Below, one piece after another: positions 1,914 to 61,117 of a stretch of DNA of 64,000 nt. A program made the translations under genes and the position numbers. Every line of letters begins with the position of its first letter. Positions within the stretch are counted from its first letter, which is position 1. This DNA comes from Rugalucina vietnamica (lineage: Eukaryota > Mollusca > Bivalvia > Lucinida > Lucinidae): the NCBI GenBank assembly GCA_964017185.1, contig OZ024882.1, forward strand, positions 36,814,488-36,878,487. The letters are read 5' to 3'. The notes below the pieces were generated by a model. It saw only the letters and a program-made list of their open reading frames with translations, was not told the DNA's origin and did no database searches.

Positions 1914-1922
1914 TTTTATCTC
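1914..1922 (+). repeat. Left target-site duplication TTTTATCTC
   Basis: The nine bases TTTTATCTC directly precede the left TIR and recur directly after the right TIR at 37351-37359. A 10-bp reading (TTTTATCTCA) is possible if the TIR starts at G1924, but it leaves one unpaired T at 37350. Nine bases is the length typical of Mutator-like and Drosophila Foldback elements. Confidence 0.88.
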
Positions 1923-2193
1923 AGGTGGGTGAAGTTAGCCGAAACAGCCGAAGCAGCAGAATCTGCTGGCAGAAGTAGCCGAAACAGCCGAATCAGCTGT
2001 TACTGCTAGCAGAACCAGCCGAAACTGCCAACATGAAATTTAAGTTCCACAGACGAGATATAACGGGGGGTGAAGCCCACCAAATTATCTACTCAGCCCA
2101 AGAAAAATATTACGAAAATGACCGAAAATACACACTTCCATATAAAAAAGCAAAGTGCGGGTACCTTCTTCGGCTATGAACCTGTCATCGCTG
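1923..2193 (+). repeat. Left terminal inverted repeat of the foldback
   Basis: Matches the reverse complement of 37080-37350 over 271 bp with about three differences: AAATTT/AAAATT near 2040, a G/T near 2068 and a T/C near 2192. The outer ~115 bp repeat the word GCCGAAACAGCCGA and contain short palindromes such as CAGCAGAATCTGCTG. The inner part (about 2100-2193) is a shortened, diverged version of the 363-bp unit, so the TIR grades into the array. Confidence 0.9.
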
Positions 2194-5100
2194 AGCGCGG
2201 ACTTTCGGGAGCTAGCGACTTAATTGGTTTTACAGTAGAATGGTGGCACTCTCAGGCCACATACGCCGCTATGTCAGGAAAACTCTGGTTTCCAAGAAAG
2301 AGGGGTACAAAAATGACCAAAAATACGCACTTCCGTATAGAAAAGGCATGTCGCGGGTACCCTCTTCGGCTGGGTACTTTTTCGACTTTCGGGAGTTGGA
2401 GACCCAGTGGGTTTTGTAGTCCATACAAGTGCCTTCACGGCCCATAGGTCGGCTATTCCGGCAAAACTCTGGTTTCTCGGAAATTTTAACTCGAACATTG
2501 GGCACTATAACATGTGCCGGTAGGGTTTGGGGTAATTTGCAGGCCTGTCATCGCCGAGCGCGGACTTTCGGGAGCTAGCCACCTAGTGCGTCTTACAGTA
2601 GAAGGGTGGCACTCTCAGACCACATGCACCGCTATGCCGGGAAAACTCTGGTTTCCGAGAAATAGGGGGACAAATATGCCCGAAAATGCACATTTCCGTA
2701 TAGAAAAGGCATGCCGCGGGTACCCTCTTCGGCTGGGTACTTTTTCGACTTTCGGGAGTTGGAGACCCAGTGGGTTTTGTAGTCCATACAAGTGCCTTCA
2801 CGGCCCATAGCTCGGCTATTCCGGGAAAACTCTGGTTTCTCGGAAATTTTAACTCGAACATTGGGCACTATGACATGTGCCGGTAGGGGGTGGGGTAATT
2901 TGCAGGCCTGTCATCGCCGAGCGCGGACTTTCGGGAGCTAGCCACCTAGTGCATCTTACAGTAGAAGGGTGGCACTCTCAGACCACATGCACCGCTATGC
3001 CGGGAAAACTCTGGTTTCCGAGAAATAGGGGGACAAATATGCTCGAAAATGCACATTTCCGTATAGAAAAGGCATGCCGCTGGTACCCTCTTCGGCTGGG
3101 TACTTTTTCGACTTTCGGGAGTTGGAGACCCAGTGGGTTTTGTAGTCCATACAAGTGCCTTCACGGCCCATAGGTCGGCTATTCCGGGAAAACTCTGGTT
3201 TCTCGGAAATTTTAACTCGAACATTGGGCACTATGACATGTGCCGGTAGGGGGTGGGGTAATTTGCAGGCCTGTCATCGCCGAGCGCGGACTTTCGGGAG
3301 CTAGCCACCTAGTGGGTCTTACAGTAGAAGGGTGGCACTCTCAGACCACATGCACCGCTATGCCGGGAAAACTCTGGTTTCCCAGAAATAGGGGGACAAA
3401 TATGCCCGAAAATGCACATTTCCGTATAGAAAAGGCATACCGCGGGTACCCTCTTCGGCTGGGTACTTTTTCGACTTTCGGGAGTTGGAGACCCAGTGGG
3501 TTTTGTAGTCCATACAAGTGCCTTCACGGCCCATAGCTCGGCTATTCCGGGAAAACTCTGGTTTCTCGGAAATTTTAACTCGAACATTGGGCACTATGAC
3601 ATGTGTCGGTAGTGGGTGGGGTAATTTACAGGCCTGTCATCGCCGAGCGCGGACTTTCGGGAGCTAGCCACCTAGTGCGTCTTACAGTAGAAGGGTGGCA
3701 CTCTCAGACCACATGCACCGCTATGCCGGGAAAACTCTGGTTTCCGAGAAATAGGGGGACAAATATGCTCGAAAATGCACATTTCCGTATAGAAAAGGCA
3801 TGGCGCTGGTACCCTCTTCGGCTTGGTACTTTTTCGACTTTCGGGAGTTGGAGACCCAGTGGGTTTTGTAGTCCATACAAGTGCCTTCACGACCCATAGC
3901 TCGGCTATTCCGGGAAAACTCTGGTTTCTCGGAAATTTTAACTCGAACATTGGGCACTATGACATGTGCCGGTAGGGGGTGGGGTAATTTGCAGGCCTGT
4001 CATCGCCGAGAGCGGACTTTCGGGAGCTAGCCACCTAGTGGGTCTTACAGTAGGAGGGTGGCATCCCAGACCACATGCACCGCTATGCCGGGAAAACTCT
4101 GGTTTCCGAGAAATAGGGGGACAAATATGCCCGAAAATGCACATTTCCGTATAGAAAAGGCATACCGCGGGTACCCTCTTCGGCTGGGTACTTTTTCGAC
4201 TTTCGGGAGTTGGAGACCCAGTGGGTTTTGTAGTCCATACAAGTGCCTTCACGGCCCATAGCTCGGCTATTCCGGGAAAACTCTGGTTTCTCGGAAATAT
4301 TAACTCGAACATTGGGCACTATGACATGTGCCGGTAGGGGGTGGGGTAATTTGCAGGCCTGTCATCGCCGAGCGCGGACTTTCGGGAGCTAGCCACCTAG
4401 TGCGTCTTACAGTAGAAGGGTGGCACTCTCAGACCACATGCACCGCTATGCCGGGAAATCTCTGGTTTCCGAGAAATAGGGGGACAAATATGCCCGAAAA
4501 TGCACATTTCCGTATAGAAAAGGCATGCCGCGGGTACCCTCTTCGGCTGGGTACTTTTTCGACTTTCGGGAGTTGGAGACCCAGTGGGTTTTGTAGTCCA
4601 TACAAGTGCCTTCACGGTCCATAGATCGGCTATTCCGGGAAAACTCTGGTTTCTCGAAAATTTTAACTCGAACATTTGGCACTATGACATGTGCCGGTAG
4701 GGGGTGGGGTAATTTGCAGGCATGTCATCGCCGAGCGCGAACTTTCGGGAGCTAGCCACCTAGTGCGTCTTACAGTAGAAGGGTGGCACTCTCAGACCAC
4801 ATGCACCGCTATGCCGGGAAAACTCTGGTTTCCGAGAAATAGGGGGACAAATATGCCCGAAAATGCACATTTCCGTATAGAAAAGGCATGCCGCGGGTAC
4901 CCTCTTCGGCTGGGTACTTTTTCGACTTTCGGGAGTTGGAGACCCAGTGGGTTTTGTAGTCCATACAAGTGCCTTCACGGCCCATAGCTCGGCTATTCCG
5001 GGAAAACTCTGTTTTCTCGGAAATTTTAACTCGAACATTTGGGCACTATAACATGTGCCGGTAGGGTGTGGGGTAATTTGCAGGCCTGTGATCGCCGAGC

Positions 5101-6143
5101 GCGGACTTTCGGGAGCTAGCCACTTAGTGGGTCTTACAGTAGAAGGGTGGCACTTTCAGACCACATGCACCGCTATGCCGGGAAAACTCTGGTTTCCGAG
5201 AAATAGGGGGACAAATATGCCCGAAAATGCACATTTCCGTATAGAAAAGGCATGCCGCGGGTACCCTCTTCGGCTGGGTACTTTTTCGACTTTCGGGAGT
5301 TGGAGACCCAGTGGGTTTTGTAGTCCATACAAGTGCCTTCACGGCCCATAGGTCGGCTATTCCGGGAAAACTCTGGTTTCTCGGAAATTTTAACTCGAAC
5401 ATTGGGCACTATGACATGTGCCGGTAGGGGGTGGGGTAATTTGCAGGCCTGTCATCGCCGAGCGCGGACTTTCGGGAGCTAGCCACCTAGTGGGTCTTAC
5501 AGTAGAAGGGAGGCACTCTCAGACCACATGCACCGCTATGCCGGGAAAACTCTGGTTTCCGAGAAATAGGGGGACAAATATGCCCGAAAATGCACATTTC
5601 CGTATAGAAAAGGCATGCCGCGGGTACCCTCTTCGGCTGGGTACTTTTTCGACTTTCGGGAGTTGGAGACCCAGTGGGTTTTGTAGTCCATACAAGTGCC
5701 TTCACGGCCCATAGCTCGGCTATTCCGGGAAAACTCTGGTTTCTCGGAAATTTTAACTCGAACATTGGGCACTATGACATGTGCGGGTAGGGGGTGGGGT
5801 AATTTGCAGGCCTGTCATCGCCGAGCGCGGACTTTCGGGAGCTAGCCACCTAGTGGGTCTTACAGTAGAAGGGTGGCACTCTCAGACCACATGCACCGCT
5901 ATGCCGGGAAAACTCTGGTTTCCGAGGAATAGGGGGACAAATATGCCCGATAATGCACATTTCCGTATAGAAAAGGCATGCCGCGGGTACCCTCTTCGGC
6001 TGGGTACTTTTTCGACTTTCGGGAGTTGGAGACCCAGTGGGTTTTGTAGTCCATACAAGTGCCTTCACGGCCCATAGGTCGGCTATTCCGGGTAAACTCT
6101 GGTTTCTCGGAAATTTTAACTCGAACATTGGGCACTATGACAT

Positions 6144-6869
6144 GTGCCGGTAGGGGGTGGGGTAATTTGCAGGCCTGTCATCGCCGAGCGCGGACTTTCG
6201 GGAGCTAGCCACCTAGTGGGTCTTACAGTAGAAGGGTGGCACTCTCAGACCACATGCACCGCTATGCCGGGAAAACTCTGGTTTCCGAGAAATAGGGGGA
6301 CAAATATGCCCGAAAATGCACATTTCCGTATAGAAAAAGCATGCCGCGGGTACCCTCTTCGGCTGGGTACTTTTTCGACTTTCGGGAGTTGGAGACCCAG
6401 TGGGTTTTGTAGTCCATACAAGTGCCTTCACGGCCCATAGCTCGGCTATTCCGGGAAAACACTGGTTTCTCGGAAATTTTAACTCGAACATTGGGCACTA
6501 TGACATGTGCCGGTAGGGGGTGGGGTAATTTGCAGGCCTGTCATCGCCGAGCGCGGACTTTCGGGAGCTAGCCACCTAGTGGGTCTTACAGTAGAAGGGT
6601 GGCACTCTCAGACCACATGCACCGCTATGCCGGGAAAACTCTGGTTTCCGAGAAATAGGGGGACAAATATGCCCGAAAATGCACATTTCCGTATAGAAAA
6701 AGCATGCCGCGGGTACCCTCTTCGGCTGGGTACTTTTTCGACTTTCGGGAGTTGGAGACCCAGTGGGTTTTGTAGTCCATACAAGTGCCTTCACGGCCCA
6801 TAGCTCGGCTATTCCGGGAAAACACTGGTTTCTCGGAAATTTTAACTCGAACATTGGGCACTATGACAT
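6144..6869 (+). repeat. Tandem pair of matching units inside the left arm
   Basis: The units at 6144 and 6507 share rare changes not seen in their neighbours (GAAAAAGCATG in place of GAAAAGGCATG, and AAAACACTGG in place of AAAACTCTGG). This marks a recent one-unit duplication. Confidence 0.8.
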
Positions 6870-8321
6870 GTGCCGGTAGGGGGTGGGGTAATTTGCAGGC
6901 CTGTCATCGCCGAGCGCGGACTTTCGGGAGCTAGCCACCTAGTGGGTCTTACAGTAGAAGGGTGGCACTCTCAGACCACATGCACCGCTATGCCGGGAAA
7001 ACTCTGGTTTCCGAGAAAAAGGGGGACAAATATGCCCGAAAATGCACATTTCCGTATAGAAAAGGCATGCCGCGGGTACCCTCTTCGGCTGGGTACTTTT
7101 TCGACTTTCGGGAGTTGGAGACCCAGTGGGTTTTGTAGTCCATACAAGTGCCTTCACGGCCCATAGCTCGGCTATTCCGGGAAAACTCTGGTTTCTCGGA
7201 AATTTTAACTCGAACATTGGGCACTATGACATGTGCCGGTAGGGGGTGGGGTAATTTGCAGGCCTGTCATCGCCGAGCGCGGACTTTCGGGAGCTAGCCA
7301 CCTAGTGCGTCTTACAGTAGAAGGGTGGCACTCTCAGACCACATGCACCGCTATGCCGGGAAAACTCTGGTTTCCGAGAAATAGGGGTACAAATATACCC
7401 GAAAATGCACATTTCCGTATAGAAAAGGCATGCCGCGGGTACCCTCTTCGGCTGGGTACTTTTTCGACTTTCGGGAGTTGGAGACCCAGTGGGTTTTGTA
7501 GTCCATACAAGTGCCTTCACGGCCCATAGCTCGGCTATTCCGGGAAAACTCTGGTTTCTCGGAAATTTTAACTCGAACATTGGGCACTATGACATGTGCC
7601 GGTAGGGGGTGGGGTAATTTGCAGGCCTGTCATCGCCGAGCGCGGACTTTCGGGAGCTAGCCACCTAGTGCGTCTTACAGTAGAAGGGTGGCACTCTCAG
7701 ACCACATGCACCGCTATGCCGGGAAAACTCTGGTTTCCGAGAAATAGGGGGACAAATATGCCCGAAAATGCACATTTCCGTATAGAAAAGGCATGCCGCG
7801 GGTACCCTCTTCGGCTGGGTACTTTTTCGACTTTCGGGAGTTGGAGACCCAGTGGGTTTTGTAGTCCATACAAGTGCCTTCACGGCCCATAGCTCGGCTA
7901 TTCCGGGAAAACTCTGGTTTCTCGGAAATTTTAACTCGAACATTGGGCACTATGACATGTGCCGGTAGGGGGTGGGGTAATTTGCAGGCCTGTCATCGCC
8001 GAGCGCGGACTTTCGGGAGCTAGCCACCTAGTGCGTCTTACAGTAGAAGGGTGGCACTCTCAGACCACATGCACCGCTATGCCGGGAAAACTCTGGTTTC
8101 CGAGAAATAGGGGTACAAATATGCCCGAAAATGCACATTTCCGTATAGAAAAGGCATGCCGCTGGTACCCTCTTCGGCTGGGTACTTTTTCGACTTTCGG
8201 GAGTTGGAGACCCAGTGGGTTTTGTAGTCCATACAAGTGCCTTCACGGCCCATAGCTCGGCTATTCCGGGAAAACTCTGGTTTCTCGGAAATTTTAACTC
8301 GAACATTGGGCACTATGACAT

Positions 8322-9773
8322 GTGCCGGTAGGGGGTGGGGTAATTTGCAGGCCTGTCATTGCCGAGCGCGGACTTTCGGGAGCTAGCCACCTAGTGCGTC
8401 TTACAGTAGAAGGGTGGCACTCTCAGACCACATGCACCGCTATGCCGGGAAAACTCTGGTTTCCGAGAAATAGGGGGACAAATATGCCCGAAAATGCACA
8501 TTTCCATATAGAAAAGGCATGCCGCGGGTACCCTCTTCGGCTGGGTACTTTTTCGACTTTCGGGAGTTGGAGACCCAGTGGGTTTTGTAGTCCATACAAG
8601 TGCCTTCACGGCCCATAGCTCGGCTATTCCGGGAAAACTCTGGTTTCTCGGGAATTTTAACTCGAACATTGGGCACTATGACATGTGCCGGTAGGGGGTG
8701 GGGTAATTTGCAGGCCTGTCATCGCCGAGCGCGGACTTTCGGGAGCTAGCCACCTAGTGCGTCTTACAGTAGAAGGGTGGCACTCTCAGACCACAAGCAC
8801 CGCTATGCCGGGAAAACTCTGGTTTCCGAGAAATAGGGGGACAAATATGCCCGAAAATGCACATTTCCGTATAGAAAAGGCATGCCGCGGGTACCCTCTT
8901 CGGCTGGGTACTTTTTCGACTTTCGGGAGTTGGAGACCCAGTGGGTTTTGTAGTCCATACAAGTGCCTTCACGGCCCATAGCTCGGCTATTCCGGGAAAA
9001 CTCTGGTTTCTCGGAAATTTTAACTCGAACATTGGGCACTATGACATGTGCCGGTAGGGGGTGGGGTAATTTGCAGGCCTGTCATTGCCGAGCGCGGACT
9101 TTCGGGAGCTAGCCACCTAGTGCGTCTTACAGTAGAAGGGTGGCACTCTCAGACCACATGCACCGCTATGCCGGGAAAACTCTGGTTTCCGAGAAATAGG
9201 GGGACAAATATGCCCGAAAATGCACATTTCCATATAGAAAAGGCATGCCGCGGGTACCCTCTTCGGCTGGGTACTTTTTCGACTTTCGGGAGTTGGAGAC
9301 CCAGTGGGTTTTGTAGTCCATACAAGTGCCTTCACGGCCCATAGCTCGGCTATTCCGGGAAAACTCTGGTTTCTCGGAAATTTTAACTCGAACATTGGGC
9401 ACTATGACATGTGCCGGTAGGGGGTGGGGTAATTTGCAGGCCTGTCATCGCCGAGCGCGGACTTTCGGGAGCTAGCCACCTAGTGCGTCTTACAGTAAAA
9501 GGGTGGCACTCTCAGACCACAAGCACCGCTATGCCGGGAAAACTCTGGTTTCCGAGAAATAGGGGGACAAATATGCCCGAAAATGCACATTTCCGTATAG
9601 AAAAGGCATGCCGCGGGTACCCTCTTCGGCTGGGTACTTTTTCGACTTTCGGGAGTTGGAGACCCAGTGGGTTTTGTAGTCCATACAAGTGCCTTCACGG
9701 CCCATAGCTCGGCTATTCCGGGAAAACTCTGGTTTCTCGGAAATTTTAACTCGAACATTGGGCACTATGACAT
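8322..9773 (+). repeat. Two-unit block repeated in tandem
   Basis: Units 8322 and 9048 share TTTCCATATAG and TGTCATTGCCG. Units 8685 and 9411 share CCACAAGCACC. The order A-B-A-B shows duplication of a 726-bp dimer. Confidence 0.8.
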
Positions 9774-12313
9774 GTGCCGGTAGGGGGTGGGGTAATTTGC
9801 AGGCCTGTCATCGCCGAGCGCGGACTTTCGGGAGCTAGCCACCTAGTGCGTCTTACAGTAGAAGGGTGGCACTCTCAGACCACATGCACCGCTATGCCGG
9901 GAAAACTCTGGCTTCCGAGAAATAGGGGGACAAATATGCCCGAAAATGCACATTTCCGTATAGAAAAGGCATGCCGCGGGTACCCTCTTCGGCTGGGTAC
10001 TTTATCGACTTTCGGGAGTTGGAGACCCAGTGGGTTTTGTAGTCCATACAAGTGCCTTCACGGCCCATAGCTCGGCTATTCCGGGAAAACTCTGGTTTCT
10101 CGGAAATTTTAACTCGAACATTGGGCACTATGACATGTGCCGGTAGGGGGTGGGGTAATTTGCAGGCCTGTCATCGCCGAGCGCGGACTTTCGGGAGCTA
10201 GCCACCTAGTGCGTCTTACAGAAGAAGGGTGGCACTCTCAGACCACATGCACCGCTATGCCGGGAAAACTCTGGTTTCCGAGAAATAGGGGGACAAATAT
10301 GCCCGAAAATGCACATTTCCGTATAGAAAAGGCATGCCGCGGGTACCCTCTTCGGCTGGGTACTTTTTCGACTTTCGGGAGTTGGAGACCCAGTGGGTTT
10401 TGTAGTCCATACAAGTGCCTTCACGGCCCATAGCTCGGCTATTCCGGGAAAACTCTGGTTTCTCGGAAATTTTACTCGAACATTGGGCACTATGACATGT
10501 GCCGGTAGGGGGTGGGGTAATTTTCAGGCCTGTCATCGCCGAGCGCGGACTTTCGGGAGCTAGCCACCTAGTGCGTCTTACAGTAGAAGGGTGGCACTCT
10601 CAGACCACATGCACCGCTATGCCGGGAAAACTCTGGTTTCCGAGAAATAGGGGGACAAATATGCCCGAAAATGCACATTTCCGTATAGAAAAGGCATGCC
10701 GCGGGTACCCTCTTCGGCTGGGTACTTTTTCGACTTTCGGGAGTTGGAGACCCAGTGGGTTTTGTAGTCCATACAAGTGCCTTCACGGCCCATAGCTCGG
10801 CTATTCCGGGAAAACTCTGGTTTCTCGGAAATTTTAACTCGAACATTGGGCACTATGACATGTGCCGGTAGGGGGTGGGGTAATTTGCAGGCCTGTCATC
10901 GCCGAGCGCGGACTTTCGGGAGCTAGCCACCTAGTGCGTCTTACAGTAGAAGGGTGGCACTCTCAGACCACATGCACCGCTATGCCGGGAAAACTTTGGT
11001 TTCCGAGAAAAAGGGGGACAAATATGCCCGAAAATGCACATTTCCGTATAGAAAAGGCATGCCGCGGGTACCCTCTTCGGCTGGGTACTTTTTCGACTTT
11101 CGGGAGTTGGAGACCCAGTGGGTTTTGTAGTCCATACAAGTGCCTTCACGGCCCATAGCTCGGCTATTCCGGGAAAACTCTGGTTTCTCGGAAATTTTAA
11201 CTCGAACATTGGGCACTATGACATGTGCCGGTAGGGGGTGGGGTAATTTGCAGGCCTGTCATCGCCGAGTGCGGACTTTCGGGAGCTAGCCACCTAGTGC
11301 GTCTTACAGTAGAAGGGTGGCACTCTTAGACCACATGCACCGCTATGCCGGGAAAACTCTGGTTTCCGAGAAATAGGGGGACGAATATGCCCGAAAATGC
11401 ACATTTCCGTATAGAAAAGGCATGCCGCGGGTACCCTCTTCGGCTGGGTACTTTTTCGACTTTCGGGAGTTGGAGACCCAGTGGGTTTTGTAGTCCATAC
11501 AAGTGCCTTCACGGCCCATAGCTCGGCTATTCCGGGAAAACTCTGGTTTCTCGGAAATTTTAACTCGAACATTGGGCACTATGACATGTGCCGGTAGGGG
11601 GTGGGGTAATTTGCAGGCCTGTCATCGCCGAGCGCGGACTTTCGGGAGCTAGCCACCTAGTGCGTCTTACAGTAGAAAGGTGGCACTCTCAGACCACATG
11701 CACCGCTATGCCGGGAAAACTCTGGTTTCCGAGAAATAGGGGGACAAATATGCCCGAAAATGCACATTTCCGTATAGAAAAGGCATGCCGCGGGTACCCT
11801 CTTCGGCTGGGTACTTTTTCGGCTTTCGGGAGTTGGAGACCCAGTGGGTTTTGTAGTCCATACAAGTGCCTTCACGGCCCATAGCTCGGCTATTCCGGGA
11901 AAACTCTGGTTTCTCGGAAATTTTAACTCGAACATTGGGCACTATGACATGTGCCGGTAGGGGGTGGGGTAATTTGCAGGCCTGTCATCGCCGAGCGCGG
12001 ACTTTCGGGAGCTAGCCACCTAGTGCGTCTTACAGTAGAAGGGTGGCACTCTCAGACCACATGCACCGCTATGCCGGGAAAACTCTGGTTTCCGAGAAAT
12101 AGGGGTACAAATATGCCCGAAAATGCACATTTCCGTATAGAAAAGGCATGCCGCTGGTACCCTCTTCGGCTGGGTACTTTTTCGACTTTCGGGAGTTGGA
12201 GACCCAGTGGGTTTTGTAGTCCATACAAGTGCCTTCACGGCCCATAGCTCGGCTATTCCGGGAAAACTCTGGTTTCTCGGAAATTTTAACTCGAACATTG
12301 GGCACTATGACAT

Positions 12314-15300
12314 GTGCCGGTAGGGGGTGGGGTAATTTGCAGGCCTGTCATCGCCGAGCGCGGACTTTCGGGAGCTAGCCACCTAGTGCGTCTTACAGTA
12401 GAAGGGTGGCACTCTCAGACCACATGCACCGCTATGCCGGGAAAACTCTGGTTTCCGAGAAATAGGGGGACAAATATGCCCGAAAATGCACATTTCCGTA
12501 TAGAAAAGGCATGCCGCGGGTACCCTCTTCGGCTGGGTACTTTATCGACTTTCGGGAGTTGGAGACCCAGTGGGTTTTGTAGTCCATACAAGTGCCTTCA
12601 CGGCCCATAGCTCGGCTATTCCGGGAAAACTCTGGTTTCTCGGAAATTTTAACTCGAACATTGGGCACTATGACATGTGCCGGTAGGGGGTGGGGTAATT
12701 TGCAGGCCTGTCATCGCCGAGCGCGGACTTTCGGGAGCTAGCCACCTAGTGCGTCTTACAGTAGAAGGGTGGCACTCTCAGACCACATGCACCGCTATGC
12801 CGGGAAAACTCTGGTTTCCGAGAAATAGGGGGACAAATATGCCCGAAAATGCACATTTCCGTATAGAAAAGGCATGCCGCGGGTACCCTCTTCGGCTGGG
12901 TACTTTTTCGACTTTCGGGAGTTGGAGACCCAGTGGGTTTTGTAGTCCATACAAGTGCCTTCACGGCCCATAGCTCGGCTATTCCGGGAAAACTCTGGTT
13001 TCTCGGAAATTTTAACTCGAACATTGGGCACTATGACATGTGCCGGTAGGGGGTGGGGTAATTTGCAGGCCTGTCATCGCCGAGCGCGGACTTTCGGGAG
13101 CTAGCCACCTAGTGCGTCTTACAGTAGAAGGGTGGCACTCTCAGACCACATGCACCGCTATGCCGGGAAAACTCTGGTTTCCGAGAAATAGGGGGACAAA
13201 TATGCCCGAAAATGCACATTTCCGTATAGAAAAGGCATGCCGCGGGTACCCTCTTCGGCTGGGTACTTTTTCGACTTTCGGGAGTTGGAGACCCAGTGGG
13301 TTTTGTAGTCCATACAAGTGCCTTCACGGCCCATAGCTCGGCTATTCCGGGAAAACTCTGGTTTCTCGGAAATTTTAACTCGAACATTGGGCACTATGAC
13401 ATGTGCCGGTAGGGGGTGGGGTAATTTGCAGGCCTGTCATCGCCGAGCGCGGACTTTCGGGAGCTAGCCACCTAGTGCGTCTTACAGTAAAAGGGTGGCA
13501 CTCTCAGACCACAAGCACCGCTATGCCGGGAAAACTCTGGTTTCCGAGAAATAGGGGGACAAATATGCCCGAAAATGCACATTTCCGTATAGAAAAGGCA
13601 TGCCGCGGGTACCCTCTTCGGCTGGGTACTTTTTCGACTTTCGGGAGTTGGAGACCCAGTGGGTTTTGTAGTCCATACAAGTGCCTTCACGGCCCATAGC
13701 TCGGCTATTCCGGGAAAACTCTGGTTTCTCGGAAATTTTAACTCGAACATTGGGCACTATGACATGTGCCGGTAGGGGGTGGGGTAATTTGCAGGCCTGT
13801 CATCGCCGAGCGCGGACTTTCGGGAGCTAGCCACCTAGTGCGTCTTACAGTAGAAGGGTGGCACTCTCAGACCACATGCACCGCTATGCCGGGAAAACTC
13901 TGGCTTCCGAGAAATAGGGGGACAAATATGCCCGAAAATGCACATTTCCGTATAGAAAAGGCATGCCGCGGGTACCCTCTTCGGCTGGGTACTTTATCGA
14001 CTTTCGGGAGTTGGAGACCCAGTGGGTTTTGTATTCCATACAAGTGCCTTCACGGCCCATAGCTCGGCTATTCCGGGAAAACTCTGGTTTCTCGGAAATT
14101 TTAACTCGAACATTGGGCACTATGACATGTGCCGGTAGGGGGTGGGGTAATTTGCAGGCCTGTCATCGCCGAGTGCGGACTTTCGGGAGCTAGCCACCTA
14201 GTGCGTCTTACAGTAGAAGGGTGGCACTCTTAGACCACATGCACCGCTATGCCGGGAAAACTCTGGTTTCCGAGAAATAGGGGGACGAATATGCCCGAAA
14301 ATGCACATTTCCGTATAGAAAAGGCATGCCGCGGGTACCCTCTTCGGCTGGGTACTTTTTCGACTTTCGGGAGTTGGAGACCCAGTGGGTTTTGTAGTCC
14401 ATACAAGTGCCTTCACGGCCCATAGCTCGGCTATTCCGGGAAAACTCTGGTTTCTCGGAAATTTTAACTCGAACATTGGGCACTATGACATGTGCCGGTA
14501 GGGGGTGGGGTAATTTGCAGGCCTGTCATCGCCGAGCGCGGACTTTCGGGAGCTAGCCACCTAGTGCGTCTTACAGTAGAAAGGTGGCACTCTCAGACCA
14601 CATGCACCGCTATGCCGGGAAAACTCTGGTTTCCGAGAAATAGGGGGACAAATATGCCCGAAAATGCACATTTCCGTATAGAAAAGGCATGCCGCGGGTA
14701 CCCTCTTCGGCTGGGTACTTTTTCGGCTTTCGGGAGTTGGAGACCCAGTGGGTTTTGTAGTCCATACAAGTGCCTTCACGGCCCATAGCTCGGCTATTCC
14801 GGGAAAACTCTGGTTTCTCGGAAATTTTAACTCGAACATTGGGCACTATGACATGTGCCGGTAGGGGGTGGGGTAATTTGCAGGCCTGTCATCGCCGAGT
14901 GCGGACTTTCGGGAGCTAGCCACCTAGTGCGTCTTACAGTAGAAGGGTGGCACTCTTAGACCACATGCACCGCTATGCCGGGAAAACTCTGGTTTCCGAG
15001 AAATAGGGGGACGAATATGCCCGAAAATGCACATTTCCGTATAGAAAAGGCATGCCGCGGGTACCCTCTTCGGCTGGGTACTTTTTCGACTTTCGGGAGT
15101 TGGAGACCCAGTGGGTTTTGTAGTCCATACAAGTGCCTTCACGGCCCATAGCTCGGCTATTCCGGGAAAACTCTGGTTTCTCGGAAATTTTAACTCGAAC
15201 ATTGGGCACTATGACATGTGCCGGTAGGGGGTGGGGTAATTTGCAGGCCTGTCATCGCCGAGCGCGGACTTTCGGGAGCTAGCCACCTAGTGCGTCTTAC

Positions 15301-18300
15301 AGTAGAAAGGTGGCACTCTCAGACCACATGCACCGCTATGCCGGGAAAACTCTGGTTTCCGAGAAATAGGGGGACAAATATGCCCGAAAATGCACATTTC
15401 CGTATAGAAAAGGCATGCCGCGGGTACCCTCTTCGGCTGGGTACTTTTTCGGCTTTCGGGAGTTGGAGACCCAGTGGGTTTTGTAGTCCATACAAGTGCC
15501 TTCACGGCCCATAGCTCGGCTATTCCGGGAAAACTCTGGTTTCTCGGAAATTTTAACTCGAACATTGGGCACTATGACATGTGCCGGTAGGGGGTGGGGT
15601 AATTTGCAGGCCTGTCATCGCCGAGCGCGGACTTTCGGGAGCTAGCCACCTAGTGCGTCTTACAGTAGAAGGGTGGCACTCTCAGACCACATGCACCGCT
15701 ATGCCGGGAAAACTCTGGTTTCCGAGAAATAGGGGGACAAATATGCCCGAAAATGCACATTTCCGTATAGAAAAGGCATGCCGCGGGTACCCTCTTCGGC
15801 TGGGTACTTTTTCGACTTTCGGGAGTTGGAGACCCAGTGGGTTTTGTAGTCCATACAAGTGCCTTCACGGCCCATAGCTCGGCTATTCCGGGAAAACTCT
15901 GGTTTCTCGGAAATTTTAACTCGAACATTGGGCACTATGACATGTGCCGGTAGGGGGAGGGGTAATTTGCAGGCCTGTCATCGCCGAGCGCGGACTTTCG
16001 GGAAATAGCCACCGAGTGGGTCTTACAGTTGAAGGGTGGCACTCTCAGACCACATGCACCGCTATGCCGGGAAAACTCTGGTTTCCGAGAAATAGGGGGA
16101 CAAATATGCCCGAAAATGCACATTTCCGTATAGAAAAGGCATGCCGCGGGTACCCTCTTCGGCTGGGTACTTTTTCGACGTCCGGGACTTGGAGACCCAG
16201 TGGGTTTTGTAGTCCATACAAGTGCCTTCACGGCCCATAGCTCGGCTATTCCGGGAAAACTCTGGTTTCTCGGAAATTTTAACTCGAACATTGGGCACTA
16301 TGACATGTGCCGGTAGGGGGTGGGGTAATTTGCAGGCCTGTCATCGCCGAGCGCGGACTTTCGGGAGCTAGCCACCTAGTGGGTCTTACAGTAGAAGGGT
16401 GGCACTCTCAGACCACATGCACCGCTATGCCGGGAAAACTCTGGTTTCCGAGAAATACGGGGACAAATATGCCCGAAAATGCACATTTCCGTATAGAAAA
16501 GGCATGCCGCGGGTACCCTCTTCGGCTGGGTACTTTTTCGACTTTCGGGAGTTGGAGACCCAGTGGGTTTTGTAGTCCATACAAGTGCCTTCACGGCCCA
16601 TAGCTCGGCTATTCCGGGAAAACTCTGGTTTCTCGGAAATTTTAACTCGAACATTGGGCACTATGACATGTGCCGGTAGGGGGTGGGGTAATTTGCAGGC
16701 CTGTCATCGCCGAGCGCGGACTTTCGGGAGCTAGCCACCTAGTGCGTCTTACAGTAGAAGGGTGGCACTCTCAGACCACATGCACCGCTATGCCGGGAAA
16801 ACTCTGGTTTCCGAGAAATAGGGGGACAAATATGCCCGAAAATGCACATTTCCGTATAGAAAAGGCATGCCGCGGGTACCCTCTTCGGCTGGGTACTTTA
16901 TCGACTTTCGGGAGTTGGAGACCCAGTGGGTTTTGTAGTTCATACAAGTGCCTTCACGGCCCATAGCTCGGCTATTCCGGGAAAACTCTGGTTTCTCGGA
17001 AATTTTAACTCGAACATTGGGCACTATGACATGTGCCGGTAGGGGGTGGGGTAATTTGCAGGCCTGTCATCGCCGAGCGCGGACTTTCGGGAGCTAGCCA
17101 CCTAGTGCGTCTTACAGTAGAAGGGTGGCACTCTCAGACCACATGCACCGCTATGCCGGGAAAACTCTGGTTTCCGAGAAATAGGGGGACAAATATGCCC
17201 GAAAATGCACATTTCCGTATAGAAAAGGCATGCCGCGGGTACCCTCTTCGGCTGGGTACTTTTTCGACTTTCGGGAGTTGGAGACCCAGTGGGTTTTGTA
17301 GTCCATACAAGTGCCTTCACGGCCCATAGCTCGGCTATTCCGGGAAAACTCTGGTTTCTCGGAAATTTTAACTCGAACATTGGGCACTATGACATGTGCC
17401 GGTAGGGGGTGGGGTAATTTGCAGGCCTGTCATCGCCGAGCGCGGACTTTCGGGAGCTAGCCACCTAGTGCGTCTTACAGTAGAAGGGTGGCACTCTCAG
17501 ACCACATGCACCGCTATGCCGGGAAAACTCTGGTTTCCGAGAAATAGGGGGACAAATATGCCCGAAAATGCACATTTCCGTATAGAAAAGGCATGCCGCG
17601 GGTACCCTCTTCGGCTGGGTACTTTTTCGACTTTCGGGAGTTGGAGACCCAGTGGGTTTTGTAGTCCATACAAGTGCCTTCACGGCCCATAGCTCGGCTA
17701 TTCCGGGAAAACTCTGGTTTCTCGGAAATTTTAACTCGAACATTGGGCACTATGACATGTGCCGGTAGGGGGTGGGGTAATTTGCAGGCCTGTCATCGCC
17801 GAGCGCGGACTTTCGGGAGCTAGCCACCTAGTGCGTCTTACAGTAAAAGGGTGGCACTCTCAGACCACAAGCACCGCTATGCCGGGAAAACTCTGGTTTC
17901 CGAGAAATAGGGGGACAAATATGCCCGAAAATGCACATTTCCGTATAGAAAAGGCATGCCGCGGGTACCCTCTTCGGCTGGGTACTTTTTCGACTTTCGG
18001 GAGTTGGAGACCCAGTGGGTTTTGTAGTCCATACAAGTGCCTTCACGGCCCATAGCTCGGCTATTCCGGGAAAACTCTGGTTTCTCGGAAATTTTAACTC
18101 GAACATTGGGCACTATGACATGTGCCGGTAGGGGGTGGGGTAATTTGCAGGCCTGTCATCGCCGAGCGCGGACTTTCGGGAGCTAGCCACCTAGTGCGTC
18201 TTACAGTAGAAGGGTGGCACTCTCAGACCACATGCACCGCTATGCCGGGAAAACTCTGGCTTCCGAGAAATAGGGGGACAAATATGCCCGAAAATGCACA

Positions 18301-20299
18301 TTTCCGTATAGAAAAGGCATGCCGCGGGTACCCTCTTCGGCTGGGTACTTTATCGACTTTCGGGAGTTGGAGACCCAGTGGGTTTTGTATTCCATACAAG
18401 TGCCTTCACGGCCCATAGCTCGGCTATTCCGGGAAAACTCTGGTTTCTCGGAAATTTTAACTCGAACATTGGGCACTATGACATGTGCCGGTAGGGGGTG
18501 GGGTAATTTGCAGGCCTGTCATCGCCGAGTGCGGACTTTCGGGAGCTAGCCACCTAGTGCGTCTTACAGTAGAAGGGTGGCACTCTTAGACCACATGCAC
18601 CGCTATGCCGGGAAAACTCTGGTTTCCGAGAAATAGGGGGACGAATATGCCCGAAAATGCACATTTCCGTATAGAAAAGGCATGCCGCGGGTACCCTCTT
18701 CGGCTGGGTACTTTTTCGACTTTCGGGAGTTGGAGACCCAGTGGGTTTTGTAGTCCATACAAGTGCCTTCACGGCCCATAGCTCGGCTATTCCGGGAAAA
18801 CTCTGGTTTCTCGGAAATTTTAACTCGAACATTGGGCACTATGACATGTGCCGGTAGGGGGTGGGGTAATTTGCAGGCCTGTCATCGCCGAGCGCGGACT
18901 TTCGGGAGCTAGCCACCTAGTGCGTCTTACAGTAGAAAGGTGGCACTCTCAGACCACATGCACCGCTATGCCGGGAAAACTCTGGTTTCCGAGAAATAGG
19001 GGGACAAATATGCCCGAAAATGCACATTTCCGTATAGAAAAGGCATGCCGCGGGTACCCTCTTCGGCTGGGTACTTTTTCGGCTTTCGGGAGTTGGAGAC
19101 CCAGTGGGTTTTGTAGTCCATACAAGTGCCTTCACGGCCCATAGCTCGGCTATTCCGGGAAAACTCTGGTTTCTCGGAAATTTTAACTCGAACATTGGGC
19201 ACTATGACATGTGCCGGTAGGGGGTGGGGTAATTTGCAGGCCTGTCATCGCCGAGCGCGGACTTTCGGGAGCTAGCCACCTAGTGCGTCTTACAGTAGAA
19301 GGGTGGCACTCTCAGACCACATGCACCGCTATGCCGGGAAAACTCTGGTTTCCGAGAAATAGGGGGACAAATATGCCCGAAAATGCACATTTCCGTATAG
19401 AAAAGGCATGCCGCGGGTACCCTCTTCGGCTGGGTACTTTTTCGACTTTCGGGAGTTGGAGACCCAGTGGGTTTTGTAGTCCATACAAGTGCCTTCACGG
19501 CCCATAGCTCGGCTATTCCGGGAAAACTCTGGTTTCTCGGAAATTTTAACTCGAACATTGGGCACTATGACATGTGCCGGTAGGGGGAGGGGTAATTTGC
19601 AGGCCTGTCATCGCCGAGCGCGGACTTTCGGGAGCTAGCCACCTAGTGGGTCTTACAGTTGAAGGGTGGCACTCTCAGACCACATGCACCGCTATGCCGG
19701 GAAAACTCTGGTTTCCGAGAAATAGGGGGACAAATATGCCCGAAAATGCACATTTCCGTATAGAAAAGGCATGCCGCGGGTACCCTCTTCGGCTGGGTAC
19801 TTTTTCGACGTCCGGGACTTGGAGACCCAGTGGGTTTTGTAGTCCATACAAGTGCCTTCACGGCCCATAGCTCGGCTATTCCGGGAAAACTCTGGTTTCT
19901 CGGAAATTTTAACTCGAACATTGGGCACTATGACATGTGCCGGTAGGGGGTGGGGTAATTTGCAGGCCTGTCATCGCCGAGCGCGGACTTTCGGGAGCTA
20001 GCCACCTAGTGGGTCTTACAGTAGAAGGGTGGCACTCTCAGACCACATGCACCGCTATGCCGGGAAAACTCTGGTTTCCGAGAAATACGGGGACAAATAT
20101 GCCCGAAAATGCACATTTCCGTATAGAAAAGGCATGCCGCGGGTACCCTCTTCGGCTGGGTACTTTTTCGACTTTCGGGAGTTGGAGACCCAGTGGGTTT
20201 TGTAGTCCATACAAGTGCCTTCACGGCCCATAGCTCGGCTATTCCGGGAAAACTCTGGTTTCTCGGAAATTTTAACTCGAACATTGGGCACTATGACAT
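12314..20299 (+). repeat. Higher-order repeat, 10-12 units, two copies
   Basis: Marker variants recur in the same order in 12314-16669 (12 units) and 16670-20299 (10 units). The order is a TTTATCGAC unit (12314; 16670), two consensus units, an ACAGTAAAAGG/ACAAGCACC unit (13403; 17759), a CTGGCTTCC/GTATTCCAT unit (13766; 18122), a CTCTTAGACC/GACGAAT unit (14129; 18485), a GAAAGGTGG/TTCGGCTTT unit (14492; 18848), a consensus unit, a GACGTCCGGGACTT unit (15944; 19574) and an ATACGGGGAC unit (16307; 19937). Copy 1 holds an extra two-unit duplication (14855-15580 repeats 14129-14854), which explains 12 against 10 units. Confidence 0.85.
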
Positions 20300-22939
20300 G
20301 TGTCGGTAAGGGGTGGGGTAATTTGCAGGCCTGTCATCGCCGAGCGCGGACTTTCGGGAGCTACAAACCTAGTGGGTCTTACAACAGAAGGGTGGCACTC
20401 TCAGACCACATGCACCGCTATGCCGGGAAAACTCTGGTTTCCGAGAAATAGGGGGACAAATATGCCCGAAAATGCACATTTCCGTATAGAAAAGGCATGC
20501 CGCGGGTACCCTCTTCGGCTGGGTACTTTTTCGACTTTCGGGAGTTGGAGACCCAGTGGGTTTTGTAGTCCATACAAGTGCCTTCACGGCCCATAGGTCG
20601 GCTATTCCGGGAAAACTCTGGTTTCTCGGAAATTTTAACTCGAACATTGGGCACTATGACATGTGCCGGTAGGGGGTGGGGTAATTTGCAGGCCTGTCAT
20701 CGCCGAGCGCGGACTTTCGGGAGCTAGCCACCTAGTGCGTCTTACAGTAGAAGGGTGGCACTCTCAGACCACATGCACCGCTATGCCGGGAAAACTCTGG
20801 TTTCCGAGAAATAGGGGGACAAATATGCCCGAAAATGCACATTTCCGTATAGAAAAGGCATGCCGCGGGTACCCTCTTCGGCTGGGTACTTTTTCGACTT
20901 TCGGGAGTTGGAGACCCAGTGGGTTTTGTAGTCCATACAAGTGCCTTCACGGCCCATAGCTCGGCTATTCCGGGAAAACTCTGGTTTCTCGGAAATTTTA
21001 ACTCGAACATTGGGCACTATGACATGTGCCGGTAGGGGGTGGGGTAATTTGCAGGCCTGTCATCGCCGAGCGCGGACTTTCGGGAGCTAGCCACCTAGTG
21101 CGTCTTACAGTAGAAGGGTGGCACTCTCAGACCACATGCACCGCTATGCCGGGAAAACTTTGGTTTCCGAGAAAAAGGGGGACAAATATGCCCGAAAATG
21201 CACATTTCCGTATAGAAAAGGCATGCCGCGGGTACCCTCTTCGGCTGGGTACTTTTTCGACTTTCGGGAGTTGGAGACCCAGTGGGTTTTGTAGTCCATA
21301 CAAGTGCCTTCACGGCCCATAGCTCGGCTATTCCGGGAAAACTCTGGTTTCTCGGAAATTTTAACTCGAACATTGGGCACTATGACATGTGCCGGTAGGG
21401 GGTGGGGTAATTTGCAGGCCTGTCATCGCCGAGCGCGGACTTTCGGGAGCTAGCCACCTAGTGCGTCTTACAGTAGAAGGGTGGCACTCTCAGACCACAT
21501 GCACCGCTATGCCGGGAAAACTCTGGTTTCCGAGAAATAGGGGGACAAATATGCCCGAAAATGCACATTTCCGTATAGAAAAGGCATGCCGCGGGTACCC
21601 CCTTCGGCTGGGTACTTTTTCGACTTTCGGGAGTTGGAGACCCAGTGGGTTTTGTAGTCCATACAAGTGCCTTCACGGCCCATAGCACGGCTATTCCGGG
21701 AAAACTCTGGTTTCTCGGAAATTTTAACTCGAACATTGGGCACTATGACATGTGCCGGTAGGGGGTGGGGTAATTTGCAGGCCTGTCATCGCCGAGCGCG
21801 GACTTTCGGGAGCTAGCCACCTAGTGCGTCTTACAGTAGAAGGGTGGCACTCTCAGACCACATGCACCGCTATGCCGGGAAAACTCTGGTTTCCGAGAAA
21901 TAGGGGGACAAATATGCCCGAAAATGCACATTTCCGTATAGAAAAGGCATGCCGCGGGTACCCTCTTCGGCTGGGTACTTTATCGACTTTCGGGAGTTGG
22001 AGACCCAGTGGGTTTTGTAGTCCATACAAGTGCCTTCACGGCCCATAGCTCGGCTATTCCGGGAAAACTCTGGTTTCTCGGAAATTTTAACTCGAACATT
22101 GGGCACTATGACATGTGCCGGTAGGGGGTGGGGTAATTTGCAGGCCTGTCATCGCCGAGTGCGGACTTTCGGGAGCTAGCCACCTAGTGCGTCTTACAGT
22201 AGAAGGGTGGCACTCTCAGACCACATGCACCGCTATGCCGGGAAAACTCTGGTTTCCGAGAAATAGGGGGACGAATTTGCCCGAAAATGCACATTTCCGT
22301 ATAGAAAAGGCATGCCGCGGGTACCCTCTTCGGCTGGGTACTTTTTCGACTTTCGGGAGTTGGAGACCCAGTGGGTTTTGTAGTCCATACAAGTGCCTTC
22401 ACGGCCCATAGCTCGGCTATTCCGGGAAAACTCTGGTTTCTCGGAAATTTTAACTCGAACATTGGGCACTATGACATGTGCCGGTAGGGGGTGGGGTAAT
22501 TTGCAGGCCTGTCATCGCCGAGCGCGGACTTTCGGGAGCTAGCCACCTAGTGCGTCTTACAGTAGAAGGGTGGCACTCTCAGACCACATGCACCGCTATG
22601 CCGGGAAAACTCTGGTTTCCGAGAAATAGGGGGACAAATATGCCCGAAAATGCACATTTCCGTATAGGAAAGGCATGCCGCGGGTACCCTCTTCGGCTGG
22701 GTACTTTTTCGGCTTTCGGGAGTTGGAGACCCAGTGGGTTTTGTAGTCCATACAAGTGCCTTCACGGCCCATAGCTCGGCTATTCCGGGAAAACTCTGGT
22801 TTCTCGGAAATTTTAACTCGAACATTGGGCACTATGACATGTGCCGGTAGGGGGTGGGGTAATTTGCAGGCCTGTCATCGCCGAGCGCGGACTTTCGGGA
22901 GCTAGCCACCTAGTGCGTCTTACAGTAGAAGGGTGGCAC

Positions 22940-23050
22940 TCTCAGACCACATGCACCGCTATGCCGGAAAAACTCTGGTTTCCGAGAAATAGGGGGACAT
23001 TTCCGAGAAACCAGAGTTTTCCCGGAATAGCCGAGCTATGGGCCGTGAAG
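22940..23050. repeat. Spacer-free centre of the foldback
   Basis: The + array reads normally to AGGGGGACA at 22991-22999. The - array begins at once with ATTTCCGAGAAACC, sharing one base (22999). The left arm stops in the first half-unit and the right arm starts in the second half-unit. The two copies of the half-unit motif AAAACTCTGGTTTC therefore face each other and form a short stem with a ~24-base loop. A 140-codon open frame across the junction (22841-23263) is an artefact of the fusion. Confidence 0.9.
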
Positions 23051-37079: not shown

Positions 37080-37350
37080 CGGCGATGACAGGTTCATAGC
37101 CGAAGAAGGTACCCGCACTTTGCTTTTTTATATGGAAGTGTGTATTTTCGGTCATTTTCGTAATATTTTTCTTGGGCTGAGTAGATAATTTGGTGGGCTT
37201 CAACCCCCGTTATATCTCGTCTGTGGAACTTAATTTTCATGTTGGCAGTTTCGGCTGGTTCTGCTAGCAGTAACAGCTGATTCGGCTGTTTCGGCTACTT
37301 CTGCCAGCAGATTCTGCTGCTTCGGCTGTTTCGGCTAACTTCACCCACCT
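37080..37350 (-). repeat. Right terminal inverted repeat of the foldback
   Basis: Reverse complement of 1923-2193 with about three differences, ending CTTCACCCACCT. Near-identity extends inward over the outermost array unit (about 36930-37079 against 2194-2345), where both ends share changes absent from internal units, for example TGACCAAAAATACGCAC. Confidence 0.9.
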
Positions 37351-37359
37351 TTTTATCTC
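37351..37359 (+). repeat. Right target-site duplication TTTTATCTC
   Basis: Direct repeat of 1914-1922, immediately outside the right TIR. Confidence 0.88.
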
Positions 37360-37374
37360 ATATAATAGAGAACC

Positions 37375-37653
37375 ATGTCTGAAGAGGAAAAGACCGTTGC
37401 GACAATCAACACCGCTATGAAGAAAATAAGCAAAGGAGAAAATCTCAAAGAAGAAATGGCGTTGATAAATGGACCAAACGCAAGTTGGGAGGAGTTTCTC
37501 ACCCCTGCACCCATGTGTATCTCTCTCCTTGGACAGCTGATGGTCATTTCTACTAGAGCCGATTTCTCACTGGAACAAACACCACCCAGGGATGGATTTA
37601 AATTGATGCGATGGCCGAACTCGTTTCGGGCTAGCCTTGTTCAGGTAATATGA
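37375..37653 (+). CDS. Possible host coding exon, unrecognised protein
   Basis: A 92-codon open frame starts AACCATGTCTG, a fair eukaryotic start context, and runs to CTTGTTCAG|GTAATA, a good splice donor at about 37645; the stop at 37651-37653 would then be intronic. The protein is mixed in composition and not repetitive: an acidic and lysine-rich first 35 residues, then a more hydrophobic stretch (SWEEFLTPAPMCISLLGQ), which looks more like coding than chance. I do not recognise the family. The ATG lies 15 bp after the foldback's target duplication, and TTTTATCTCATATAATAG just upstream could also be a splice acceptor. The foldback therefore sits either in the 5' UTR or at the end of an upstream intron. 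No downstream exon can be recognised. Confidence 0.4.
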   Translation: MSEEEKTVATINTAMKKISKGENLKEEMALINGPNASWEEFLTPAPMCISLLGQLMVISTRADFSLEQTPPRDGFKLMRWPNSFRASLVQVI

Positions 37654-44000: not shown

Positions 44001-44547
44001 AACTGTCTGCTGTGATAAAATCACTCAATGTGGCTGTTCTGGCATTCATATCGCCAGTTAAACATATAAGCGAAGATTGACCGCACATAGACGCTATCTC
44101 AGTTTCAAGATCTACGAGCTCGTCTTCATTTAGGAAACGTGACTGGGCTGGGGGAATATACAAAATACCTAGAATTAGGCCATCGTTTGTGCAAAACAGT
44201 GAATTATCTAACCGTATCCACATAATATAGTCATTGTCAGTTTCTATGACGCTTATTTTTGGTGTCAAGTTCAGTTTGCAAAAAAGACCAATGCCACCTG
44301 ATCTTCTGATAAAATTTTGTTTCCTATGTTGCGAGAAAAAGTGATATCCGGGAACTGAGATGACGTCAGTTTGGTCTAGCTTCGTTTCAGTGACACAAAG
44401 TAAATCATATTTTGATAACAGTTCTGTAAATTCGGGGTAGTTTAGGCGCCGTCTTAACCCACAGACATTGATTGAACTAGTATGTAGTTTTAAGAGTACT
44501 ATGTTGGTTCGGGTCACTAACCCCCACGTATTCCTATTTATTGTCAT
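41091..44547 (-). pseudogene. LINE ORF2: endonuclease-reverse transcriptase, frameshifted
   Basis: The protein would nick target DNA and reverse-transcribe the element RNA. The endonuclease (44547-43700) shows SINVCGLR, VTETKLD, GILYIPPAQS, TGDMNAR, SLIDYTICS and, at the usual SDH position, LSDGHALLSW. The RT has NPENYRPITVLSYLSK and NQAGFRKGYS in 43220-42576, AFIDFSKAFDSVW in another frame near 42570-42540, and GVRQGENLSPVLF and YADD in 42443-41091. The C-terminus holds a CxxC...HxxxxC zinc motif. Breaks: a frameshift near 43950, an in-frame TGA near 43798, a frameshift near 43278, one at the A-run 42598-42611 and one near 42435. The copy cannot make a full protein. The surviving longest frame (450 codons) carries the RT catalytic motif and C-terminal region. 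Confidence 0.85.
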
Positions 44548-60058: not shown

Positions 60059-60065
60059 ATAAGGA

Positions 60066-61106: not shown

Positions 61107-61117
61107 CAGGATGTTTT

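What the first reader, a model, noticed from the sequence alone, without database searches (positions are those of the whole stretch)
1914..37359. A 35.4-kb foldback transposon made of two opposed satellite arrays
Seen: 271-bp TIRs with about three differences, a 9-bp direct repeat outside them, and between them only a 363-bp tandem unit, ~57 copies in + then ~38 in - orientation. Known: Drosophila Foldback elements have inverted arms of tandem units and 9-bp target duplications, but are usually a few kb long. Inference: a satellite-bearing Foldback/Mutator-like element of exceptional size. It links transposition to satellite formation.
Basis: partly seen in the sequence, partly recalled or inferred. 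Interest (0 to 1): 0.92.

Follow-up and report, generated by a model that had tools for sequence, protein, structure and literature searches.

The report
Giant mobile satellite-DNA foldback transposon family

Summary
Window 1923-37350 is one element: 258-bp TIRs (2 mismatches), 9-bp target duplication TTTTATCTC, 57.4 satellite units (363 bp) in + then 38.8 in -. It belongs to a family. In the host genome (1.09 Gb) the TIR end has 108 matches; 101 located termini form 41 facing pairs of 1.1 to 325.5 kb, median 45.7 kb. At 82 of 82 ends the TIR runs into satellite in one orientation; 33 of 41 pairs have 9-10-bp target duplications; 4 of 41 have an empty paralogous site. At least 26 of 41 keep a middle domain between the arms; the window copy lacks it. 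Three copies at unrelated sites share monomer order arm by arm, so an ancestor of about 22 kb was probably copied whole; arms then changed length by blocks of monomers. A sister subfamily (373-bp satellite, about 76% alike) has the same build. It works like a non-autonomous Foldback element, probably of Mutator type; no transposase was tied to it. Drosophila Tetris is the closest precedent; scale and shared monomer order between copies are new.

The parts
1914..1922 (.). left target-site duplication TTTTATCTC
1923..2180 (+). left terminal inverted repeat, 258 bp; outer part with imperfect ~40-bp subrepeats, inner part (190-253) 80% identical over 65 bp to satellite positions 127-191
   Evidence: TRF 1931-2029, period 40
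2181..22999 (+). arm A: satellite array, 57.4 units of 363 bp; unit 1 divergent (7.7% from consensus), units 17-48 with identical copies 10-12 units apart
22983..23013 (.). arm A / arm B fusion point (22999), imperfect hairpin; this 31-mer is private to this copy, where relatives keep a middle domain
   Evidence: pattern with <=3 mismatches found once in the genome
22999..37092 (-). arm B: satellite array, 38.8 units of 363 bp in opposite orientation
37093..37350 (-). right terminal inverted repeat, 258 bp, 2 mismatches to the left one
37351..37359 (.). right target-site duplication TTTTATCTC

Best explanation
The window holds one copy of a non-autonomous TIR transposon family whose arms are satellite DNA: TSD - TIR - satellite array (one orientation) - middle domain - satellite array (other orientation) - TIR - TSD. 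SHOWN: anatomy of the window copy and two siblings, shared ends of 41 pairs, 9-10-bp target duplications, paralogous empty sites for four, a shared middle domain in at least 26, monomer order shared by siblings at unrelated sites, differences in arm length by blocks of monomers, and absence of the middle domain in this copy. INFERRED: a Mutator-type transposase acting in trans recognises the TIRs and moves the element as a unit; an ancestor of about 22 kb was copied whole; the satellite arose by tandem duplication of the inner TIR; arms grow and shrink in place by unequal exchange, so an element moved with its satellite founds new arrays wherever it lands.
For: 108 TIR-end hits, 0 control; 41 facing pairs from 101 located termini. 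At 82 of 82 ends the TIR is followed by the satellite in the same orientation (591-4001 bp read per end). Target duplications: 29/41 exact 9 bp, 2/41 with one mismatch, 2/41 exact 10 bp; no two listed elements share one exactly except a nested pair on C8. Paralogous empty sites for 4/41, among them the 119.8-kb C10:7410896 element: 168 ungapped bases, 159 identical, across the site with one copy of the target. Middle domain in 26/41 pairs, a lower bound since 40 of 5245 candidates were scored; no open frame over 91 aa in the one copy read. Trio W / C14:9656140 / C5:75121404: arm A differs by 5-8 bases in 1762 between copies, arm B of W and C14 by 5 plus a 24-bp deletion, while arms A and B differ by 46-54 where 1762 bp are held. 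Monomer order is shared arm by arm (0 of 300 shuffles reach the score in each of five comparisons) and not between A and B (149-238 of 300 in three controls). Flanks held for the three are unrelated apart from one 28-bp match between the two C5 flanks. Block changes: C14 units 4-13 recur as 17-26, then a period of 10. The 325.5-kb pair: of 10 points sampled, 8 are satellite +, 1 is -, 1 is a dispersed repeat lying between two middle-domain pieces; TSD CCCTTAAAC. Satellite 35-mer: 6578 matches, 0 control; the 100 listed all fall within three of the pairs (one search read).
Against: No transposase was linked to the TIRs: of 59 MULE-domain hits none lies inside the 41 pairs; the nearest is 258 kb from the 123 TIR positions compared and 62 kb from the 100 listed sister termini. 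8 of 41 pairs lack a target duplication, among them two of the sibling trio, so the case for whole-array copying rests on one copy with a TSD plus two without. Copying at full present length is not shown: beyond about 13-15 units of arm A the siblings differ, and the 325-kb length could be growth after insertion. No empty site of the window copy was found. Only three elements and the small ones were read through; arm lengths of the others are distances from TIR to middle domain. Exact array lengths depend on the assembly.
Confidence: 0.87

Rival explanations
1. Short Foldback elements transposed, and nearly all of the satellite grew in place afterwards by unequal exchange; large arrays never moved.
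For: Small members exist: 1091, 1618 and 3722 bp pairs and a 2.6-kb one with TSD CATTACATT. Block duplications are evident in the arms, and inner units are more alike within than between elements (2.4-2.7% against 3.3%).
Against: In the trio, arm A units 1-13/15 and about 30 units of arm B are in the same order in copies at unrelated sites, so about 16 kb of arms was probably copied. The 1091-bp member has both TIRs and a truncated unit and looks like a deletion derivative.
Confidence: 0.3
2. Ordinary satellite arrays that were split by an inversion, with TIR-like edges as a coincidence, or an assembly artefact.
For: Arrays of satellite in opposite orientation can arise by inversion (general knowledge).
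Against: 41 pairs share the same ends and satellite phase, with target duplications in 33, a common middle domain in 26 and paralogous empty sites in 4.
Confidence: 0.02
3. Helitron/Helentron carrying central tandem repeats, a usual satellite carrier in bivalves.
For: Satellites inside Helitrons are common in the oyster (passages of PMC8268682).
Against: These elements have long TIRs, 9-10-bp target duplications and arrays in two orientations; Helitrons have none of these (recalled definition).
Confidence: 0.02
4. Foldback moved by a transposase of another superfamily (for example P-type, as for Galileo).
For: Galileo is Foldback-like but a P element by its transposase (abstract of PMC3573991), so architecture alone does not give the superfamily. 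No MULE gene was found next to these ends.
Against: Target duplications here are 9, at times 10, bp, as for Tm1, a Mutator/Foldback element (abstract of PMC3169594).
Confidence: 0.2

Closest known systems
Tetris, Foldback element of Drosophila virilis (PMC4079207; abstract, part 1 of 2 of the Results and part 1 of 2 of the Discussion read)
   Same: TIR with an outer unique domain and ~220-bp tandem units in each arm, middle domain, 8-10-bp target duplications, no coding capacity; part of the unit resembles the outer TIR (37 bp, ~80%; here 65 bp, 80%); units expand into satellite arrays of up to 66 copies; autonomous partner not found.
   Different: Tetris: three structurally complete copies with TIRs up to 1,735 bp, and its authors suggest that larger arrays may have disrupted transposition. 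Here 41 pairs plus a sister subfamily, 9.7-262 kb between TIR and middle domain in the 26 pairs where it was found, and monomer order shared between copies at different sites.
Tm1, Mutator/Foldback family of root-knot nematodes (PMC3169594; abstract read)
   Same: Composite TIRs of variable length and 9-bp target duplications; non-coding and MITE-like members.
   Different: Tm1 has members that encode a Phantom-type Mutator transposase; none was found for this family. The abstract mentions no satellite arrays.
Galileo (PMC3573991; abstract read)
   Same: Long, internally repetitive TIRs with rearrangement and exchange between copies.
   Different: P-superfamily transposase; the abstract mentions no satellite of this scale.
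Satellites of Crassostrea gigas (PMC8268682; passages and Table 1 rows read)
   Same: Satellite units dispersed over chromosomes in mobile elements. One of them, CgiSat28 (182 bp, 44% AT, Repbase match DNA/MuDR, on all 10 chromosomes), resembles in size and composition the ~181-bp half-unit here: a lead, sequences not compared.
   Different: Most inspected ones sit in Helitrons with a short central array; for most of the inspected satellites the longest array is 9 to 48 units; no opposed arrays are described in the passages read.
Interspersed tandem repeats of the D. virilis group (PMC10783647; passages read)
   Same: Dispersed euchromatic tandem arrays that can appear at new loci.
   Different: Mean locus 5.5 kb in D. 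americana, no features of known TEs; mode of spread stated as unknown.

Membership tests
Foldback (FB) elements | Long inverted arms composed largely of tandem units | tested here: met
   for three elements read through; 82 of 82 ends start with it
Foldback (FB) elements | Target duplication of about 9 bp | tested here: met
   33 of 41; 8 of 41 without
Foldback (FB) elements | Arms separated by a variable middle domain, which may be absent | tested here: met
   at least 26 of 41 pairs with M; absent in the window copy
Mutator (MULE) superfamily | 8-11-bp target duplication | tested here: met
   9-10 bp; the range is recalled
Mutator (MULE) superfamily | MULE transposase encoded by an element with the same TIRs | tested here: inconclusive
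   59 MULE-domain hits in the genome, none near the TIR positions compared; not all TIR positions were listed and more diverged TIRs were not searched
Tetris family itself | Sequence homology to Tetris TIR or TIR-220 | not tested
Helitron/Helentron | No target duplication, no long TIRs (recalled) | tested here: not met
Stand-alone satellite DNA | Arrays not bounded by transposon ends | tested here: inconclusive
   100 of 100 listed exact satellite matches lie in three TIR pairs, but the other 6478 matches were counted and not placed

The most novel reading that the evidence does not exclude
Satellite DNA here is itself the body of a size-tolerant transposon: whole arrays of tens, perhaps hundreds, of kilobases are moved as units, and the same lineage has kept TIR and satellite together while both diverged (two subfamilies, satellites about 76% alike), so it is a self-spreading satellite rather than a transposon that happened to leave a satellite behind.
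Probability: 0.55. Interest if true: 0.85.

Novelty: new variant of a known kind. Interest (0 to 1): 0.74.

Why it matters
How satellite arrays reach many dispersed sites is open; for comparable Drosophila repeats the mode of spread is stated as unknown (PMC10783647, passages). Here an answer can be read in the sequence: arrays sit between TIRs, most pairs have target duplications, and some have empty paralogous sites. The family is also, as far as I recall, unusually large for TIR-bounded elements without genes, and it offers sibling copies in which block-wise array growth can be followed, so the question whether large arrays stop transposition becomes testable by comparing individuals.

Tried and rejected
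Looked for an autonomous copy in two unpaired TIR loci with non-satellite interiors (C2:4600074, C6:56397956): the interiors share repeats with each other, frames reach 217 aa, and no transposase was seen by eye (no family search was run on them). Looked for a fixed junction: the window's array-array junction is unique, so it is probably a private deletion. Looked for mirror copying of arms from the TIR or from the centre: no offset stands out, although units 50-51 of arm A equal units 34-35 of arm B. Rejected inversion of a plain satellite, assembly artefact and Helitron (see rivals). Own empty site of the window copy: no paralogue spans it among 40 of 391 candidates scored. The first middle-domain search used a query that held 506 bp of satellite beside 694 bp of middle domain, so its hits are biased to satellite neighbours; it was repeated with middle domain only and conclusions rest on that. 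Count of the sister satellite was asked for and never answered. The pairing W arm B against C5 arm B was not put through the shuffle test. Rows dropped: 3 main-family termini were removed from the sister list before pairing; of the 108 TIR hits the tool listed 100, one further terminus (C5:75121404, more diverged) was added for pairing, and 19 of the 101 stayed unpaired. Of 150 exact matches to the sister end 100 were listed; 42 facing pairs come from 97 of them, 13 stayed unpaired, and 6 neighbouring hits within 500 kb were in the other (-/+) order. Paper searches run; none of the listings showed a satellite-armed Foldback of this scale, but subscription papers and preprints are not held, and most listed papers were not opened.

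Full report
WHAT IS IN THE WINDOW. The element spans 1923-37350. TTTTATCTC lies at 1914-1922 and 37351-37359 and nowhere else in the window. The TIRs are 258 bp with 2 mismatches. The array 2181-22999 holds 57.4 units of 363 bp and 22999-37092 holds 38.8 units in the opposite orientation. They meet with a 1-base overlap at 22999 in an imperfect hairpin. The outer TIR has imperfect 40-bp subrepeats. Its inner part (190-253) is 80% identical over 65 bp to the satellite, and the unit itself is a diverged dimer, its halves about 72% alike over 103 bp. The satellite therefore probably grew out of the TIR (inference).

A FAMILY IN THE GENOME. A 30-base TIR end with up to 3 mismatches gives 52 + and 56 - matches and 0 for the reversed control; 100 were listed. 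With one more diverged terminus, 101 located termini form 41 facing pairs, and 19 stay unpaired. Lengths run from 1,091 to 325,530 bp, median 45,711; 38 of 41 are at least 10 kb and 4 at least 100 kb. At 82 of 82 ends (591 to 4001 bp read) the TIR is followed by the 363-bp unit in the same orientation relative to the TIR, so each pair begins and ends with opposed satellite. In one left end (C5:42028788) the TIR is interrupted, and some TIRs are shorter by up to about 80 bp.

TRANSPOSITION. Target duplications are exact over 9 bp in 29 of 41, with one mismatch in 2, and exact over 10 bp in 2 more: 33 of 41. The 8 without are C3:61179472, C5:75121404, C8:27902283, C8:37083298, C13:50379723, C14:9656140, C15:19303292 and C16:2184554. 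C8:37083298 is explained by nesting: the outer TIR C8:37071629 shares CCCTTGAAC with C8:37102004; by coincidence this differs by one base from the target of the 325-kb element, and 0.5 such near-matches are expected among the ends compared. These are paralogous repeats without the insertion. The window's own site has none among the candidates scored.

MIDDLE DOMAIN. C14:9656140-9706987 carries a 2.6-kb non-satellite stretch between its arms, 32% GC and without open frames over 91 aa. A 1601-bp query from inside it gave 74 matches from 40 scored of 5245 candidates. 56 of 74 lie in 26 of the 41 pairs. Of the other 18, 6 lie on C26 and C6, where an unpaired TIR is listed; 3 form a diverged copy at C9:10963363; 9 are confined to query 1035-1320, apparently a separate dispersed repeat. 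From TIR to the nearest middle-domain match the distance is 9.7 to 261.6 kb, often very unequal on the two sides (21 and 124 kb in C9:12203024). In the 325.5-kb element it lies at 63.860-63.865 Mb in two pieces; 8 sampled points to its left are satellite +, the one to its right is -, and the point between the pieces is a dispersed repeat. The window copy lacks the domain; its junction 31-mer is found once in the genome.

SIBLINGS SHARE THEIR ARRAYS. Three elements are close relatives: the window copy (W), C14:9656140 (50.8 kb) and C5:75121404 (30.4 kb). The left arm of W matches the right arms of the other two at 5-8 differences in 1762 bp; the right arm of W matches the left arm of C14:9656140 at 5 differences plus a 24-bp deletion, and that of C5 at 4 in the 597 bp held; arms of different kind differ by 46-54 where 1762 bp are held. 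I read all three through. Arm A has 57, 77 and 13 units of at least 330 bp in W, C14 and C5, arm B 38, 48 and 64. Unit order agrees arm by arm: in five comparisons no shuffle of 300 reached the observed chain score; in three A-against-B controls 149 to 238 of 300 did (W arm B against C5 arm B was not run). The shared order covers about the first 13-15 units of arm A and about 30 of arm B, which with TIRs, degenerate units and middle domain gives an ancestor of about 22 kb (my sum). Beyond that, C14:9656140 has units 4-13 recurring as 17-26 and then a period of 10, and W has identical copies 10-12 units apart: block-wise unequal exchange is the simplest reading. Flanks held for the three are unrelated; the only cross-match is 28 bp between the two flanks of C5. 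Weak point: only W of the three has a target duplication, and the left end of C5 is damaged.

EDGES AND CORES. In 18 elements, TIR-side first units are closer to first units of other elements (6.6%) than to inner units of their own arm (8.0%); inner units differ by 2.4-2.7% within and 3.3% between elements. Cores are homogenised, edges less so.

SISTER SUBFAMILY. AGATGGGTGAAGTTAGCC has 78 + and 72 - exact matches, 0 control. 100 are listed; 3 of them are main-family termini, and the other 97 give 42 facing pairs, median 42.4 kb, two of them only 215 and 277 bp. In 5 pairs read at their ends, 4 have exact 9-bp duplications and one reads as a 10-bp TGATCTGCAA. Their satellite has a period of about 373 bp and is about 76% alike to the 363-bp one. 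TIR and satellite have thus diverged together.

HOW MUCH OF THE SATELLITE IS IN ELEMENTS. A 35-base satellite pattern has 6578 matches, 0 control; the 41 pairs have room for about 5950 units. The 100 matches listed, exact ones from C1 up to C2:37.69 Mb, fall inside three pairs, + before and - after the middle. The rest were not placed, so stand-alone arrays are not excluded.

MOBILISER. 59 MULE-domain (PF10551) matches, many in long open frames, 123 of 123 candidates scored; none within the 41 pairs, nearest 258 kb from 123 TIR positions and 62 kb from 100 sister termini. Mutator type is inferred from target length, as was done for Tetris (PMC4079207, Discussion) and as holds for Tm1 (PMC3169594, abstract). 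Galileo (PMC3573991, abstract) shows that a Foldback build alone does not settle it. A lead from the oyster: CgiSat28, a 182-bp GC-rich satellite with a MuDR match in Repbase (PMC8268682, Table 1 row), has the size and composition of the half-unit here; sequences were not compared.

AGAINST WHAT IS KNOWN. Tetris has the same plan at small scale, with satellite arrays of up to 66 copies, and its authors suggest that larger arrays may have disrupted transposition. The present family has TIR-bounded arrays up to 325 kb and siblings that share about 16 kb of ordered satellite at unrelated sites. I therefore rate it a new variant of a known kind. The organism is not identified; neighbouring repeats suggested a mollusc to me, which is recall and not a result.

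CHANGES ON CHECKING.

Noticed in passing
window 37375-37650: An ATG 15 bp after the right target duplication opens a 92-codon frame followed by a GTAATA splice-donor-like site (by eye); the element may sit in the 5' region of a gene. No Pfam match at E 0.01.
   Followed up: partly
window arm A units 50-51 (19967-20692) and arm B units 34-35 (24392-25117): Identical unit pairs with private variants in opposite arms, not in that form in the sibling copies: recent transfer between arms or internal inversion.
   Followed up: partly
window 41091-44938 (-) and 51475-54427 (+): Open frames that look like LINE reverse transcriptase and endonuclease by eye; not tested against families.
   Followed up: no
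window 59305-63894 (-): Chain of overlapping open frames; the two pieces tested had no Pfam match.
   Followed up: partly
window 56554-58019, 48464-48961, 50650-50913: Further tandem repeats of 453, 177 and 24 bp near the element.
   Followed up: no
L114 (C1:99624010-99624180), and C2:81319873-81320087, C3:43192152-43192428: Very short pairs of the same termini, 171-277 bp, MITE-like; the one read (L114) shows no 9-bp duplication by eye.
   Followed up: partly
L057 (C9:37057410-37061131) and L058 (C13:48039209-48040299): Short main-family members, 3722 and 1091 bp, both with exact target duplications.
   Followed up: partly
C5:63598000-63923529: The two ends of the 325.5-kb member have identical TIRs over the compared columns, though TIR-to-middle distances are 262 and 58 kb: end equalisation between arms or recent origin.
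   Followed up: no
C9:10963363-10964861: A diverged copy of the middle domain (82-92%) outside the listed TIR pairs.
   Followed up: no
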